Shown piece by piece: positions 2,277 through 33,689 of a stretch of 64,000 nucleotides of DNA. This DNA is from Niveibacterium microcysteis. GTDB lineage: Bacteria; Pseudomonadota; Gammaproteobacteria; Burkholderiales; Rhodocyclaceae. Location: contig NZ_CP071060.1 of NCBI RefSeq assembly GCF_017161445.1, positions 496,001 to 560,000 on the forward strand. Direction: 5' to 3'. The notes under the pieces are model-generated. The model was not told the DNA's origin. It did no database searches and saw only the letters and a list, made by a program, of their open reading frames with translations. The position numbers were made by a program, and so were the translations under genes. Position 1 is the stretch's first letter; every line of letters begins with the position of its first letter.

Positions 2277-3500
2277 ATGCGTCACCCGCGCCTGGTGTTG
2301 TTCTCCGTCTGTTGCGTCGCCCTGATGTCCACCGTGGGCGTCGCGCTGCCGTACCCGATTCTCTCGCCGCTGTTCATCGACGGCCCGGTCAACGGCTTCA
2401 CCCACTGGGCCGGGCTCAATCCGAAGCTGCTGCTGGGTATCGCGATTGCCCTGAACCCCTTCGGCATCTTGCTCGGTAGCCTGGTGCTGGGCCCGATGTC
2501 CGATCGCTACGGCCGCCGTCGCATCATGCTTGCCACGCTAACCCTTGCGATCCTTGGCTACGCGTTGAGTGCATTTGCGCTTGTGACTGAGAACTTCCCG
2601 CTCTTCGCTCTTGCACGCTTTGCGACCGGCCTCTGCGAAGGCAATGCCGCGATTGCCCGCGCGATCGCCGCGGACCTGCATCCGCAGATCGACAAGACGC
2701 GCTCGTTCTCGATGGTGAATGCCTCGCTCTACATCGGCTGGCTGGTCGGCCCGTTGCTGGGTGGCTTCCTGATGCCGCTGGGTGGCTGGGTGCCGTTCGT
2801 GGTGGCCGCGGCGATGATGCTGCCGGCCTTGGTACTGCTCGCCTGGCTGGTGCCCAACACCGGCGCGAAAGCGGACCCCGGCGGCCGTGGCTGGGTTGCC
2901 TTCGCGCGTGAGCAACACGCCTTCCGGCTGCTGGAGGATCCGGCGGTTCGGCGTGTATTCTGGCTCCAACTTGCGTTCACCTTCGGTCTGAATGGCTTCT
3001 ACGAGTTCTACCCCTTGTGGCTGGTCGAGTTCGCTCGGCTGGGGCCGACCGGTATCTCTTGGGTCACCGCCGGCATGTGCCTGCTGATGACCTTGATGAG
3101 CGCGCTGGTGTGGCCGCGCATCGGGCAGCGATTCAGGCCGCTCGCCGCTGCGCGCAGCACCGCGTGGGTGGTGGCTGCCTGCTTTGTGGTGCTGGCAACC
3201 GGCTGGTCGACGCTTGGCATCGTGGTGATCGTGCTGATCGGCGTGCCATTGTCGATCTACAGTACGTCGATGCCGGTGCACTGGTCGCAAAGCTTCGACC
3301 AGCACGGCCAGGGCGCGGTGATGGGATTGCTCTCGACCACCTTCTGCCTCGCCAACGTTGCGGTTGCCTTGGTCGGCGCAGCGCTGATCCTGCTCGATAC
3401 GCGCCTGGTGCTGGCCCTCAGCGCAGTCGCTTGCGGCACCGCGGCCTGGCGCCTTGGCGGCCTGCTGCGGCGCGGCCCGCCGGCTGTGGCGGCGGCCTGA
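2277..3500 (+). CDS. MFS transporter (drug:H+ antiporter-1 like)
   Basis: A 407-aa polytopic inner-membrane protein with about 12 hydrophobic helices. The MFS signature between helices 2 and 3 is clear (GPMSDRYGRRRIML). Other family features are the helix-4 stretch RFATGLCEGN and a hydrophilic central loop near residue 200. The DHA1/TetA-like layout suggests proton-coupled export of a small molecule, but the substrate cannot be read from sequence. The ATG at 2277 has no good Shine-Dalgarno sequence. It follows a perfect palindrome that may be its operator, and the GNAT gene starts 4 bases after its stop, so the two are probably co-transcribed. Confidence 0.85.
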   Translation: MRHPRLVLFSVCCVALMSTVGVALPYPILSPLFIDGPVNGFTHWAGLNPKLLLGIAIALNPFGILLGSLVLGPMSDRYGRRRIMLATLTLAILGYALSAFALVTENFPLFALARFATGLCEGNAAIARAIAADLHPQIDKTRSFSMVNASLYIGWLVGPLLGGFLMPLGGWVPFVVAAAMMLPALVLLAWLVPNTGAKADPGGRGWVAFAREQHAFRLLEDPAVRRVFWLQLAFTFGLNGFYEFYPLWLVEFARLGPTGISWVTAGMCLLMTLMSALVWPRIGQRFRPLAAARSTAWVVAACFVVLATGWSTLGIVVIVLIGVPLSIYSTSMPVHWSQSFDQHGQGAVMGLLSTTFCLANVAVALVGAALILLDTRLVLALSAVACGTAAWRLGGLLRRGPPAVAAA

Positions 3501-6100: not shown

Positions 6101-6718
6101 TCAGGCGGGGGCTAGCATGCCCTGGGTTTCGATGAAAGCGATGATGTCCGAAAGTCCTTGCCCGGATTTGAGATTGCTGAAAACAAATGGCTTTTCTCCG
6201 CGCATTTTTTTCGCGTCGCGGTCCATCACCTCCAGCGAGGCGCCCACCAGCGGTGCCAAGTCGATCTTGTTGATCACCAGCAGATCGCTCTTCGTGATGC
6301 CCGGGCCGCCCTTGCGCGGGATCTTGTCGCCGGCCGATACGTCAATCACGTAAAGCGTGAGGTCCGAGAGCTCGGGGGAGAAAGTCGCTGCGAGGTTGTC
6401 GCCGCCGGATTCGACGAAGATGATCTCCAGCCCGGCGAAACGCTGGTTCAGGCGGTCGATCGCTTCGAGGTTGATCGAGGCGTCTTCGCGGATCGCGGTG
6501 TGCGGGCAGCCGCCGGTTTCCACGCCGATGATCCGTTCCGGCGCCAGCGCTTCGTTGCGCACGAGGAACTGCGCGTCCTCGGCGGTGTAGATGTCGTTGG
6601 TGACGACAGCGATGTTGTACTTCTCGCGCAGTGCCTGGCACAGCGCGAGCGTGAGGGCGGTCTTGCCGGAGCCGACGGGGCCGCCGATGCCGACGCGGAG
6701 GGCTTGTTGGGTGGTCAT
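6101..6718 (-). CDS. ureG: Urease accessory GTPase UreG
   Basis: A 205-aa SIMIBI-class GTPase that couples GTP hydrolysis to nickel delivery into apo-urease with UreD, UreF and UreE. Visible are the P-loop GGPVGSGKT (12-20), the nickel-binding CPH (71-73), the switch region [15 protein letters not shown] and the guanine-specificity NKID. Length matches the family. It is separated from ureF, the preceding gene of the operon, by an 860-base gap that holds repeat copy A. Its expression may therefore need its own promoter or read-through of the repeat's hairpins. Confidence 0.97.
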
Positions 6719-6770
6719 GGTGTGAGTCTTCTTGAATTGGCGAAAGCGCCATGCAGGCGGACGCGGGGAA

Positions 6771-6802
6771 GTAGGTTGGGCTGAGTCTTGCGAAGCCCAA
6801 CG
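6771..6802 (+). repeat. REP-like 32-bp repeat (GTAGG...GAAGCCCAACG)
   Basis: This motif starts GTAGGTTGGGCTGAG and ends GCGAAGCCCAACG. A diverged copy lies on the opposite strand at 33658-33689, on the equivalent side of repeat copy B. GGTTGGGCT and AGCCCAAC can pair, giving a REP-type hairpin. Such short sequences are common dispersed repeats in beta- and gamma-proteobacteria. Confidence 0.6.
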
Positions 6803-6869
6803 CTTGGTGTGCGGTTTCGCGCTTGCTGCTTGCGATTGGCGTTGTTGGTTTGCAGGCCTTCGTCGGCCG

Positions 6870-7511
6870 GGGTCCCGCCCCCGGCGGGCGTGTTACTTCT
6901 TTTGCTTCGCCAAAAGAAGTAACCAAGAAAAGGCGACCCGGCGTTCGCGGTCAGGTGCTGCGCACCTGACTTCCCTGCGCTGCTCGCGAAATCGGGCGGC
7001 TGCGGAACTCGCGCCGGGCTACGCCCGCCGCTCAGACAGTCCTCGCCGTCGTCGCTGCGCGCCGATTCCCCGAGTTCGCTGCGCTGCTCGGCGCTCTCGA
7101 CGGGACCCAAAGTCAAAACCATCGGTTGAGCAACGCGTGTGTGATGTTCGTAGCTTGGATGAAGGAGAGCGGAATCCGGGGTGGACGTATCCAGATGTTC
7201 AAGCGCACCTGCCGGATTCCGGCCGGCGGCCTGGATCCGGGCTACGAGCAGCCTGCAACGGGCGATCGTCGACGTTTTTCGATCCCCCTCTGAAACGCCG
7301 AGCAGCGCAGAGGCATCGGGTTCCGACGCGCAGCGGCGGTGGCGAGGACTGTTTGAGGCCCGCAGGGCCGAGTTCCGCAGCCACCCGATGTTTCGAGCAG
7401 CACAGGGCACCCCTTGCGCAGCAAGGGGCGTTGAAGCGGGGCGACTTTCTTTGGGTACTTTCTTTGTTCGTACAAAGAAAGTACTCCGCCCGCCGGGGCG
7501 GGACCCGGCTT
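6870..7511 (+). repeat. Composite inverted-repeat element, copy A (between ureF and ureG)
   Basis: About 640 bp without a believable gene. It is bounded by a ~20-base inverted repeat (GGGTCCCGCC...GGCGGGCG on the left and its complement on the right). Just inside each end is a long hairpin: GTTACTTCTTTTG/CAAAAGAAGTAAC near 6891-6922, and GTACTTTCTTTG/CAAAGAAAGTAC near 7455-7484. The two halves resemble each other in inverted orientation over most of their length, sharing for example GGCTGCGGAACTCG and CAGTCCTCGCC. The centre carries the complementary pair GGAATCCGG/CCGGATTCC. Copy B at 32975-33610 has the same layout in opposite orientation. Long ORFs here are artefacts of GC-rich DNA. Confidence 0.85.
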
Positions 7512-7577
7512 GAACGGACCAGCCGCAACATGGCGACAAATGCACCGAAGTCGAAAGAAGCGAAACACGCTCGCCGT

Positions 7578-8261
7578 TCATGACCTGAACAACCTCGTGT
7601 ATTGCCCCTCATGCATCGCACTTGCCCACGCCAACCCAGGCGTGAAGTTCTCCCATTTATCCGGCCCGATCGTCATCGCCGCACGTGCGAGCGCGGGGAT
7701 CGGTTCGCCGAGGGCAACGAGTAGCCGCTGGCCAGCGCTCTGGCCGAGCGGCACGATCTTGACCGCGGCCATCACCTGGTTTTCAAGCCACGCCCAAAGG
7801 TAGGCCACCACCGCGTCTTCCGGCGGCAGGGTCCAGGCAGCGGCGGCAGCGGACCAGGCGGCGGGGTAGGAGAGCTCGCCGATGCCGGTCAGGGCTTGGC
7901 GAGTGAAGGCGGGCAAGGATTCCAGTTCGCGCAGCAGGCGCGCGCAGGAGTAGCCCATCTGCACGGTCTCGGCGCGCAGTTCCATGGATTCGCGGGTAGC
8001 GAGGAATTCCGCGTCGAGCCGCAGCACTTCGCTCACTTCGCCGGTGCGCCAGGCACGCATCATCGCCACCAGCGCCGGTGCTTCGCAGCGTGCGATGCCG
8101 TAGCGCATCAGGTCGCCGATCCAGTCGCGCGCCTGTGCTTCGTTACTGACCCAGCCGCACTCCACCGCCCACTCAAGCCCCTGCGAATAGCTGAAGGCGC
8201 CGACCGGCAGGGCCGGGCTGGCGAGATGCAGCAGGCGGGTCAGCGCGGCGAGCGAGCTCAC
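7578..8261 (-). CDS. ureF: Urease accessory protein UreF
   Basis: A 227-aa helical accessory protein that, with UreD and UreG, forms the activation complex loading nickel into urease. The family signature LLHLASPALPVGAFSYSQGLEWAVE lies at the N-terminus, and the conserved C-terminal helix region follows (TPGLAWASAMHE). The start is taken as the GTG at 8261, which overlaps the preceding GNAT stop in GTGA; this gives the usual UreF length and implies translational coupling. Upstream in-frame sequence is unconserved. Repeat copy A begins (on this strand) just beyond its stop. Confidence 0.95.
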   Translation of the reverse strand: MSSLAALTRLLHLASPALPVGAFSYSQGLEWAVECGWVSNEAQARDWIGDLMRYGIARCEAPALVAMMRAWRTGEVSEVLRLDAEFLATRESMELRAETVQMGYSCARLLRELESLPAFTRQALTGIGELSYPAAWSAAAAAWTLPPEDAVVAYLWAWLENQVMAAVKIVPLGQSAGQRLLVALGEPIPALARAAMTIGPDKWENFTPGLAWASAMHEGQYTRLFRS

Positions 8262-8731
8262 GCGGCGGCCTCGTTCGCGGCAAGCGTCTTGCTGAAGCAG
8301 ATCGCCTCGGGCCGGCCGATGTAGCGGCCGAAGTTGGGGATCTCGCGATAGCCGTGGGCGCGGTAGAAGGCGACCGCCGTGAGGTTCACGCGTCGGGTTT
8401 CCAGCCACAACTCGCGATAGCCATCGGCGGCGGCGCTGCGTTCCAGTTCAGCAAGCAGGTCGCGTCCGATGCCGCCGCCGCGTGTGCGCGCGAACATGCG
8501 CTTGAGCTCGGCGATGCCTGGCTGCAGCGGGCGGTAGGCGCCGCAGCCCACGGCTTCACCGCTCGCGTCGCGGGCGATCACGAAGCGCGCGCCGGGCCCG
8601 CGTACGTCGGCGGGGTCGAAGCTGCTGCGGCCACTATCGCCGGTGATTGCGGCGAGCGTGTCGGACAGCGCATCGAGCAAGGCCCGCGCGTCGTCCGAAT
8701 CCGGTGCGGCGGTGCTAATGCTCAGGCTCAT
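8258..8731 (-). CDS. GNAT acetyltransferase (urease operon, second of the paralogous pair)
   Basis: A 157-aa acetyltransferase with the GNAT core: [10 protein letters not shown], then [19 protein letters not shown] as the acetyl-CoA loop, and [14 protein letters not shown] at the C-terminus. It overlaps both neighbours by 4 bases (ATGA with ureE, GTGA with ureF), so it is fully embedded in the urease transcript. It resembles the gene at 9214-9693 (shared VGCGAY and KRMF...GIGR/GLGI blocks), pointing to an old duplication. The substrate is unknown. A role tied to urease is inferred only from position. Confidence 0.85.
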
Positions 8732-9695: not shown

Positions 9696-11396
9696 TCAGA
9701 ACAGGAAGTAGCGCTGCGCCATCGGCAGTACGCTGGCCGGCTCGCAGGTCAGCAACTCACCATCGGCACGCACCTGATAGGTCTCGGCGTCGACGTCGAT
9801 GTGGCCGCACCAGTCGTTGTGGATCATGTCGGCCTTGGTGACTTTGCGGATGTTCTTCACCGCCACCAGCGGTTTCGACAGACCGAGCTTCGCGACGCTG
9901 CCGTTGTCCAGCGCGGCCTGCGACACGAAGGTGACAGAGGTCTTCAACGCACCGCCGAAGCTGCCGAACATCGGGCGGTAGTGCACCGGCTGCGGCGTCG
10001 GGATCGAAGCGTTGGCGTCGCCCATCGCGGCAGCGGCGATCATGCCGCCCTTGATGATCAGGCTGGGCTTCACGCCGAAGAAAGCCGGCTTCCACACAAC
10101 CAGGTCGGCGAGCTTGCCGACTTCGATCGAGCCGACTTCGTGCGCGATGCCGTGTGCGATCGCCGGGTTGATCGTGTACTTGGCGATGTAGCGCTTGGCG
10201 CGGAAGTTGTCGTTGCGCTCACCGTCACCCGGCAGGGCGCCGCGCTGCACTTTCATCTTGTGCGCCGTCTGCCAGCAGCGGATCACCACTTCGCCGACGC
10301 GGCCCATCGCCTGCGAGTCCGACGAGTACATCGAGATCGCGCCGATGTCGTGCAGGATGTCTTCGGCGGCGATCGTCTCGCGGCGAATGCGGCTCTCGGC
10401 GAAGGCCACGTCTTCGGCGATCGAGGCGTCGAGATGGTGGCACACCATCAGCATGTCGAGATGCTCGTCGATGGTGTTCACGGTGTAGGGCCGCGTCGGG
10501 TTGGTCGAGCTCGGCAGCACGTTGGGCAGGCCGGCGAGTTTGACGATGTCCGGCGCATGGCCGCCGCCCGCCCCTTCGGTGTGGAAGGTGTGGATGGTGC
10601 GGCCCTTGAAGGCGGCGGCGGTGTCTTCGACGAAGCCCGATTCGTTGAGCGTGTCGGAGTGGATCGCGACCTGCACGTCGTACTGCTCGGCCACGGCGAG
10701 GCAGTTGTCGATCGCGGCCGGCGTCGTGCCCCAGTCTTCGTGCAGCTTGAGCCCGATCGCGCCGGCTTCGATCTGCTCTGCGAGCGGGCCTGGCAGGGAT
10801 ACGTTGCCCTTGCCGAGGAAGCCGAGGTTCATCGGGAAGGCATCGGCCGCTTCGAGCATGCGTGCGATGTGCCACGGGCCCGGCGTGCAGGTGGTGGCGA
10901 AGGTGCCGGTGGCCGGCCCGGTGCCGCCGCCCAGCATGGTAGTCACGCCGCTCATCAGCGCTTCGTCGATCTGCTGCGGGCAGATGAAGTGGATGTGCGT
11001 GTCGATGCCGCCGGCGGTGATGATCATGCCCTCGCCGGCGATGATCTCGGTGCCGGCGCCGATGGCAATCGTTATGCCGGGCTGGATGTCCGGGTTGCCG
11101 GCCTTGCCGATCGCGGCGATGCGGCCCGCCTTGATCGCGATGTCGGCCTTGACGATGCCCCAGTGGTCGAGGATCAGCGCGTTGGTGATCACCGTGTCGG
11201 CCACTTCATGTGAGAGCTTCTGGCCCTGGCCCATGCCGTCGCGGATCACTTTGCCGCCGCCGAACTTCACTTCCTCGCCGTAGAGGGTGTAGTCCTTCTC
11301 GACTTCGATCCAGAGTTCGGTGTCAGCGAGGCGCACGCGGTCGCCGGTGGTGGGGCCGAACATTTCCGCATACGCGCGGCGCGAGATTTTCGCCAT
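9696..11396 (-). CDS. ureC: Urease alpha subunit (catalytic)
   Basis: The 566-aa catalytic subunit hydrolyses urea to ammonia and carbamate at a dinuclear nickel centre in the cytoplasm. All expected ligands are present and fall at the numbering of the well-studied Klebsiella enzyme: His134 and His136 (GGIDTHIH), carbamylated Lys217 (GLKLHEDWG), His246, His272, the flap Cys319-His320 (MVCHHL), and Asp360 (YSSD). The protein is full length with no frameshift. Its ATG overlaps the ureB stop by one base. Confidence 0.99.
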
Positions 11397-32974: not shown

Positions 32975-33610
32975 AAGCCGGGTCCCGCCCCGGCGGGCGG
33001 GGTACTTTCTTTGTGCGAACAAAGAAAGTACCCAAAGAAAGTCGCCCCGCTTCAACGCCGCGCGCTTCGCGCACGGTGCCCTGCGCTGCTCGAAGCATCG
33101 GGTGGCTGCGGAACTCGCCCTCGCTGCGCTCGGAGCTCGAACAGTGCTCGCCACCGCCACGCTACGCGCGTCGGACCCCGATGCTTCTGCGCTGCTCGGC
33201 GTTTCAGAGGGGGAGGAAAAAGCGTCGGCGTGCGACCGCGGCAGGGCTTTCGTAGCCCGGATGCAGGCCGCAGGCCGGAATCCGGGAAGGGCAGTTGAGT
33301 ATCCGAACTCGCCCGCCCAGGATTCCGCTCCGTTTAGCCTTCGAGCAACTTACACGCGTCGCGTCGCCGATGGTTTTGACTTTGGGTCCCGTCGAGAGCG
33401 CCGAGTAGCGGAGCGCGACCGGGAAGAAGGCCGAGGACTGTTTGAGCTCCGAGCGCAGCGAGGGCGAGTTCCGCAGGCCCCCGGTCGTGCGAGCAACGCA
33501 GGGGAGTCAGGCACGTAGTGCCTGACCGCGAACGCCGGGTCGTCTTTTCTTGGTTACTTCTTTTGGCGAAGCAAAAGAAGTAACACGCCCGCCGGGGCGG
33601 GACCCGGCTT
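32975..33610 (-). repeat. Composite inverted-repeat element, copy B
   Basis: A 636-bp element in opposite orientation to copy A. Its ends are a perfect 25-base inverted repeat, starting AAGCCGGGTCCCG. Inside the left end is the hairpin GTACTTTCTTTG/CAAAGAAAGTAC, inside the right end GTTACTTCTTTTG/CAAAAGAAGTAAC. The arms match copy A in shared blocks such as GGCTGCGGAACTCGCC and CGCTGCTCGGCGTTTCAGAGGG. The centre carries GGCCGGAATCCGGG. In the 820-base gap between the kinase and the next gene I see no credible coding sequence. Confidence 0.85.
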
Positions 33611-33657: not shown

Positions 33658-33689
33658 CGTTGGGCTTCGCCGTGCTCAGCTCACCCTAC
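33658..33689 (-). repeat. REP-like 32-bp repeat overlapping the end of the next gene
   Basis: Read on the minus strand it is GTAGGGTGAGCTGAG...GGCGAAGCCCAACG, a diverged copy of 6771-6802. It supplies the last codons and the TGA stop of the membrane protein gene at 33676-34248. Confidence 0.6.

What the first reader, a model, noticed from the sequence alone, without database searches (positions are those of the whole stretch)
6870..7511. A ~640-bp element built as a long imperfect inverted repeat, present twice
Copies at 6870-7511 and 32975-33610 lie in opposite orientation in non-coding gaps. Each is itself an inverted duplication: its two ~300-base arms share, in reverse complement, blocks such as the terminal GGGTCCCGCCCCGGCGGGCG, GGCTGCGGAACTCG and CAGTCCTCGCC. 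The arms flank a centre with GGAATCCGG. This is larger and more ordered than ordinary REP/BIME sequences and encodes no transposase. It looks like a non-autonomous mobile or structural repeat of this lineage.
Basis: seen in the sequence. Interest (0 to 1): 0.78.

Follow-up and report, generated by a model that had tools for sequence, protein, structure and literature searches.

The report
Widespread paired hairpin-arm DNA element
The 640-base repeat is one copy of a widespread, apparently unnamed bacterial element made of two folded, mirror-image arms around a centre that in some relatives holds foreign genes, so it may be a gene-carrying element with structured-RNA ends.

Summary
Both copies are real inverted A-arm/B-arm elements. 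The genome holds 14 such pairs, one half copy and one decayed remnant. GTAG palindromes at outer ends and centre are nearly confined to the element (8 of 8 and 8 of 9 matches). The arms carry a covarying fold of about 220 nt. On base pairs predicted from both strands, G-U outnumbers A-C 43 to 9 when read from the centre outward, a hint of RNA; pooling all pairs removes that bias. A covariance model finds the core in 35 of 369 class genomes, own included. In relative G025 all six elements enclose 1.1-5.1 kb of lower-GC, mostly unknown genes; five more loaded loci were seen, one in Niveibacterium. Most Niveibacterium copies would then be the empty form. Orthologous copies are often less alike than paralogues, so arms seem to be exchanged. 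Mobility is not shown: no transposase found, no target duplication, no clean empty site; Y1 transposase is absent from three carriers. No Rfam match; nine literature searches listed no description.

The parts
6771..6801 (+). outer GTAG palindrome of copy 1 (left), GTAG outermost
   Evidence: G000:C1:502771-502801, 1 mismatch to the pattern; all 8 genome matches lie 33-60 bp outside an element as matched
6869..7105 (-). copy 1, A arm; core RNA-model match 6936-7092 on the - strand (read from the centre outward)
   Evidence: coordinates, R1 126.3 bits (this arm is in the model's training set)
6870..6902 (.). copy 1 terminal repeat and start of the terminal hairpin (partner 7474-7506, 73% complementary)
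   Evidence: pair I5
6892..6923 (.). terminal hairpin of the A arm, 13-bp perfect stem
   Evidence: pair I7
7106..7292 (.). centre of copy 1 (the place where loaded relatives carry cargo)
   Evidence: between the arms
7150..7180 (+). central GTAG palindrome; an inverted counterpart follows at about 7212-7245
   Evidence: G000:C1:503150-503180, 1 mismatch; counterpart read by eye and found (L074:4386, - strand)
7293..7506 (+). copy 1, B arm; core RNA-model match 7297-7441 on the + strand
   Evidence: coordinates, R1 140.2 bits (in the training set)
7455..7484 (.). terminal hairpin of the B arm, 13-bp perfect stem
   Evidence: pair I8
32980..33204 (-). copy 2, B arm; core match 33045-33200 on the - strand
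   Evidence: L079:4012-4236, R1 130 bits (not in the training set)
33205..33386 (.). centre of copy 2
   Evidence: between the arms
33387..33605 (+). copy 2, A arm; core match 33400-33540 on the + strand
   Evidence: L079:4419-4637, R1 104.6 bits (not in the training set)
33659..33689 (-). outer GTAG palindrome of copy 2 (right), GTAG outermost
   Evidence: G000:C1:529659-529689, 2 mismatches

Best explanation
The repeat is the empty form of a widespread two-ended element. Its ends are two homologous but distinct arms (A and B), each with a conserved fold of about 220 nt that probably acts as RNA read outward from the centre. The centre accepts foreign genes (cargo). Copies sit at long-lived chromosomal positions, and their similar arms let RecA-type recombination exchange arm modules, and probably cargo, between copies and incoming DNA. 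Shown: pairing, covariation, multi-copy, cargo between arms in relatives, and a pattern of similarity that implies exchange of arms. Inferred: that the fold acts as RNA, that cargo enters by recombination between arms, and that some trans-acting function first dispersed the element.
For: 14 A-B pairs, one half and one remnant in the genome. Covariation: 19 of 61 (33 B arms) and 17 of 57 (25 A arms) pairs with changes on both sides; covariation score 0.242 and 0.250 against 0.019-0.064 for slid controls, and 0 of 500 shuffles as high. G-U versus A-C on pairs predicted from both strands: 20:2 (B) and 23:7 (A). Outward-reading core pairs at 48 of 50 places with two or more model hits, and at 12 of the 14 pairs of this genome and 6 of 6 in G025. 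Cargo: 6 of 6 elements in G025, GC 0.45-0.53 against 0.59-0.72 in flanks; L105 in Niveibacterium; L190, L224 and L227 in three other families; L183 by inverted repeat only. 10 of 12 tested G025 cargo ORFs have no Pfam match above cut-off. Own-genome paralogue closer than orthologue in 13 of 16 A-arm and 13 of 17 B-arm comparisons, one B tie. Core in 35 of 369 class genomes.
Against: No recombinase is tied to it; only the Y1 family was searched for across genomes. No target-site duplication and no clean empty site: of four G025 loci with both flanks in one stretch of sister genome G062, one is nearly empty (about 210 bp) and three hold other DNA of about 2.5 kb without arms, so the loci may be insertion hotspots regardless of the arms. 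Inner cargo junctions look ragged by eye. Most pairs found elsewhere are empty. If pairs predicted from either strand are pooled, A-C equals or exceeds G-U (84 to 71 and 122 to 96), so the strand argument rests on the shared pairs alone. For the one arm folded on both strands the z-score was -2.5 outward and -3.6 inward. Two weaker covariation measures do not stand out: further pair types reached by 72 and 167 of 500 shuffles, B pairs with double changes by 5 of 500. Same-strand transcripts usually enter at the B arm, so they do not explain outward folding of B. No promoter-like site. The model misses the A arms of L083 and L087, and L229 and L232 show same-strand hits only. L183 has no core match.
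Confidence: 0.5

Rival explanations
1. A structural or regulatory repeat only (BIME-like): the arms are folded RNA or DNA in untranslated regions acting on transcript ends, stability or supercoiling; genes found between arms got there by accident because the gaps tolerate insertions.
For: Most pairs are empty. Many positions are conserved between species. Of 26 copies between same-strand genes in G000, G001, G003 and G006, 23 have the B arm upstream, about 11 versus 2 independent loci, as expected if orientation matters for transcription. Three G062 loci hold other DNA without arms.
Against: 6 of 6 elements in G025 and single loci in Niveibacterium and three to four other families hold genes between the inner ends of the arms. 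One G025 centre holds an attC-like site.
Confidence: 0.31
2. A MITE or mobile insertion cassette of an unidentified cut-and-paste transposon: the arms are long terminal inverted repeats recognised by a transposase elsewhere.
For: Two inverted ends, no transposase in the window copies or among the cargo ORFs tested, dispersed copies, cargo in some.
Against: No target-site duplication seen; covarying folds go beyond simple binding sites; no autonomous copy met, though none was searched for systematically; arms look exchanged at fixed loci.
Confidence: 0.1
3. A composite of GTAG REPs mobilised by a REP-associated tyrosine transposase (RAYT/TIRYT).
For: GTAG palindromes in the centre and at outer ends, also beside the loaded element L190; one Y1 transposase gene in the genome.
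Against: No arm within 1.5 kb on either side of that Y1 gene. Three carriers, G025, G009 and G036, have no Y1 match. In G025 no GTAG palindrome lies within 150 bp of an element end by a simple scan.
Confidence: 0.06

Closest known systems
REP/BIME, GTAG superfamily (PMC3733652: abstract, outline, find passages, sections 7 and 16 seen)
   Same: GTAG-tagged palindromes in inverted pairs, intergenic, multi-copy
   Different: 0.64-0.8 kb with 220-nt covarying arms; GTAG palindromes nearly confined to the element; Y1 gene absent from three carriers
TIRtrons/TIRYT terminal repeats (PMC3733652, section 16)
   Same: long inverted repeats, some self-complementary, repeated in the genome
   Different: those flank a Y1 transposase gene; none was met between these arms
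MITEs and mobile insertion cassettes (recalled)
   Same: non-autonomous inverted ends, with or without cargo
   Different: no target duplication found; covariation in the ends
Integron cassette clusters without integrase, CALIN (search listing only, and recalled)
   Same: one clear attC-like site, and looser ones, in G025 cargo
   Different: the arms are not attC sites; most cargo has none by the filter used
Bridge RNA of IS110 and omega RNA/HEARO of IS200/IS605 (recalled)
   Same: structured RNA read from an element end
   Different: two inverted copies, no cognate protein known, no Rfam match; only an analogy

Membership tests
GTAG REP/BIME | GTAG tag next to a 20-40 nt palindrome, in inverted pairs | tested here: met
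   8 outer and 8 central palindromes at elements
GTAG REP/BIME | small unit in high copy number on its own | tested here: not met
   only 8 and 9 genome matches, 8 of each at the element
RAYT/TIRYT-mobilised element | Y1 transposase gene flanked by the repeat | tested here: not met
   no arm within 1.5 kb of the own Y1 gene; no Y1 in carriers G025, G009, G036
MITE / mobile insertion cassette | inverted terminal repeats without internal transposase | tested here: met
   window copies and the cargo ORFs tested
MITE / mobile insertion cassette | target-site duplication at insertions | tested here: inconclusive
   no clean filled/empty pair found
MITE / mobile insertion cassette | autonomous relative with the same ends | not tested
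   no systematic search for a transposase between arms
CALIN / integron | attC sites | tested here: inconclusive
   one attC-like site in L122 and a weaker one inside an ORF of L134 pass the filter; looser pattern matches in L132 and L133; none in 8 of 10 cargo stretches
Rfam RNA family | score above the gathering threshold | tested here: not met
   best E 0.32 around copy 1

The most novel reading that the evidence does not exclude
A categorically new gene-carrying element of this proteobacterial class: its two ends are divergently read, homologous structured RNAs that help an unknown enzyme, acting in trans, to capture and move ORFan cargo, with chromosomal empty copies serving as landing pads.
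Probability: 0.2. Interest if true: 0.9.

Novelty: new variant of a known kind. Interest (0 to 1): 0.66.

Why it matters
If right, a repeat found in 26 families among 35 matching genomes of a class sample is an element with RNA-like ends that can hold unknown genes. It gives a search handle, a covariance model, for cargo loci, and makes testable how ORFan genes enter genomes without a visible transposase. It also warns that long ORFs on both strands of such repeats, as in this window, are not genes.

Tried and rejected
Rejected: coding function. ORFs of 288 and 283 aa run across copy 1 on both strands but match no NCBIfam family and no Pfam family above cut-off, and the stems change in a compensatory way. 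Rejected: a known Rfam family. Rejected: dependence on a RAYT. No support: phage origin (no match in the phage collection). Weak: defence cargo. Of 10 proteins given to PADLOC, one beside the half copy matched NsnA and PD-T4-2_A models and one in L146 matched marginally; 8 had no match.

Led nowhere or wrong at first: I took minus-strand loci to be turned, so the slices of L008, L013 and L014 were wrong or partial; redone. The strict attC filter gave 0 sites, loosened. RNAalifold on the mixed A, B and G025 alignment gave only 21 pairs, so model R1 is mostly sequence. L115 (G034) looked like arms around 5.4 kb but the DNA between looks like ordinary chromosomal genes and no core was found there; not counted as cargo. 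Literature: nine searches; four returned no paper; I opened one paper.

Known weaknesses: arm identities use fixed-length slices, so an internal insertion (g3e) lowers its value, and several rows share a locus; gene orientation uses a simple codon score that missed ureF; structures were counted on the sequences they came from; arms exchange modules, so sequences are not independent; A2 leaves out A arms with insertions, truncation or no pattern match, among them the divergent ones of L083 and L087.

Full report
WHAT IS THERE. Both copies are genuine inverted A-arm/B-arm elements. Copy 1 (6869-7506) lies between ureF (7578-8408) and ureG (6101-6718), on the minus strand like ureE, ureC and a HupE/UreJ gene nearby (Pfam). 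Copy 2 (32980-33605) lies beside a hybrid histidine kinase gene. In the 4.85-Mb genome (G000) there are 14 A-B pairs, one half copy (C1:1721160-1721412) and one remnant (about C1:1815780) that matches an internally deleted form of a full element in relative G001. In the copies aligned, left and right arms are of two different types (outputs cut in part), so the element has two distinct ends. A scan for a 20-base A-arm motif found 15 stretches: 7 of Niveibacterium sp. 24ML, 4 of an uncultured Uliginosibacterium MAG, 3 of an unnamed proteobacterial MAG, and one Streptomyces stretch that is probably chance. Five of six other same-genus genomes match by DNA; G005 does not.

BORDERS. All 8 genome matches of the outer palindrome (up to 3 mismatches) lie 33-60 bp outside an element as matched, with GTAG outermost. 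Of 9 matches of the central palindrome, 8 lie in element centres and one, at 3 mismatches, does not. So these palindromes are parts of the element here, and the full unit can reach about 0.8 kb.

FOLD. Aligned from the centre outward, 33 B arms and 25 A arms from G000, G001, G003 and G006 (selection) give consensus structures with 61 and 57 pairs, 19 and 17 of which change on both sides. Covariation scores are 0.242 and 0.250; sliding the partners by 1-3 columns gives 0.019-0.064, and none of 500 shuffles reaches the observed score. Two weaker measures are less clear: B pairs with double changes (19 against a shuffled mean of 15.4, 5 of 500 as high) and further pair types (72 and 167 of 500 as high). 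The consensus energy is better outward than inward (-82.8 against -70.8; -65.4 against -54.4). On pairs predicted from both strands G-U exceeds A-C by 20:2 and 23:7, which suggests selection on RNA read outward; but if pairs predicted from either strand are pooled, G-U and A-C are 71:84 and 96:122, so the argument rests on the shared pairs. For one B arm folded alone the z-score was -2.5 outward and -3.6 inward, and no promoter-like site was found near copy 1. Because of the pooled count, which I first left out, I lowered the main confidence from 0.55 to 0.50.

SPREAD. The A arm of G025 matches 45 of 369 genomes drawn across the class at the DNA level, with 2 candidates scored per genome. A covariance model of the shared core (R1: 33 sequences, 21 base pairs, rough E-values) matches 35 of 369, own included, 8 candidates scored per genome. 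In a sample of 299 genomes of the phylum 6 match, all of the same class, own included. The plasmid collection has 2 records, Variovorax and Comamonas; the phage collection none. Among loci read with the model, 50 distinct places have two or more core hits and 48 contain a neighbouring pair that reads outward (duplicates dropped: L138, L219, L208; E up to 0.01, 0.5 in the others). L229 and L232 have two same-strand hits instead. Single hits are common: 17 of 50 sources have two or more hits, 19 one and 14 none, 17 of 29 have two or more and 12 one. A later check found outward pairs in 12 of the 14 pairs of G000 (in L083 and L087 the A arm is missed) and in 6 of 6 elements of G025.

CARGO. In G025 every one of six elements holds 1.07-5.1 kb between the arms, GC 0.45-0.53 against 0.59-0.72 in the flanks. 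Of 12 cargo ORFs tested from G025, 10 have no Pfam match above cut-off; the two others have an ion-channel domain (L133) and a TPR repeat (L132). DUF4238 (L131) and LAPAL (L134) matches are below cut-off. L122 has an 81-bp attC-like site between two ORFs; L132 and L133 have looser ones. Other loaded elements: L105 in G001, same genus as the window (DnaJ domain, and a YodL match below cut-off; GC 0.51 against 0.67); L190 (261-aa ORF, GC of the gap 0.44 against 0.63); L224 (GC 0.42 against 0.62); L227 (2.0 kb between arms 90% complementary, GC close to its flanks); L183 (716 bp between arms 89% complementary, GC 0.52 against 0.57, but no core match). Inner junctions in G025 look ragged by eye, unlike a site-specific insertion.

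DYNAMICS. Many positions are shared between species, yet a copy is often closer to another copy in its own genome than to its orthologue: 13 of 16 A-arm and 13 of 17 B-arm comparisons, one B tie. This indicates exchange between copies. Where a relative lacks the element the sites are not clean: L087 against L144 (2.2 kb of other DNA) and L156 (flanks nearly joined, 19 bp between homologous blocks); L105 against L143 (2.15 kb of other DNA). In G062, of the genus of G025, no arms were found in five stretches, nor in one of G061; of four G025 loci with both flanks in one stretch, one is nearly empty (about 210 bp) and three hold about 2.5 kb of other DNA. No target-site duplication was identified. 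The half copy in G000 lies beside a GmrSD_N-domain gene and an ORF with a HEPN match below cut-off, while its orthologue in G003 lies beside other DNA.

CONTEXT. Of 34 Niveibacterium-group copies (G000, G001, G003, G006), 26 lie between same-strand genes, 5 convergent, 2 divergent, 1 uncalled; gaps of the window itself are 24, 5 and 7 of 36, so tandem siting is not special. In 23 of the 26, or about 11 versus 2 independent loci, the B arm faces the incoming transcript (simple gene caller; G002 copies not typed as A or B and left out). In G025, 4 of the 5 elements with both neighbours called lie between convergent genes.

READING. Structure, pairing, spread and cargo are observed; exchange follows from the identities. 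That the arms act as RNA and that the element captures genes by recombination are inferences. Literature: PMC3733652 (abstract, outline, find passages, sections 7 and 16) describes GTAG REPs and transposase-flanking inverted repeats but nothing like this in the parts seen. Nine searches listed no description; only open-licence PMC papers are covered, so an earlier name cannot be excluded.

Noticed in passing
window 10961-11246 (+): Rfam RF02514 (5' ureB sRNA) scores 133.6 bits antisense to the urease alpha gene; probably reflects coding conservation of urease rather than a real RNA.
   Followed up: no
window 6715-7581 (-) and 6732-7583 (+): ORFs of 288 and 283 aa are open across the whole element on both strands and match no family above cut-off; an annotation pipeline could call them as proteins.
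   Followed up: yes
L142 6806-8721: A GmrSD_N-domain gene (PADLOC NsnA and PD-T4-2_A models) and an ORF with a sub-threshold HEPN match sit beside the half copy; the orthologous site in G003 (L146) has different DNA.
   Followed up: partly
L081, L093, L103, L109: An extra hairpin module of about 70 nt is inserted at the same place in the A arm; sequence seen in L081, L093 and L103, inferred in L109 from a 70-bp gap between matches.
   Followed up: partly
L084 and L087 (G000:C1:3610593-3615808); L076 and L077 (415660-422421): Pairs of complete elements lie about 4.1 and 5.4 kb apart.
   Followed up: no
L190 1608-1640 (-): In a distant family (G084) the loaded element is followed on the right by a GTAG palindrome like the outer palindrome of Niveibacterium.
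   Followed up: partly
L160 (G062) 2488-3223: DNA just outside one element in G025 (L114 1-741) lies, 96% identical, inside the inserted DNA of another locus in G062, which suggests exchange or rearrangement between these sites.
   Followed up: partly
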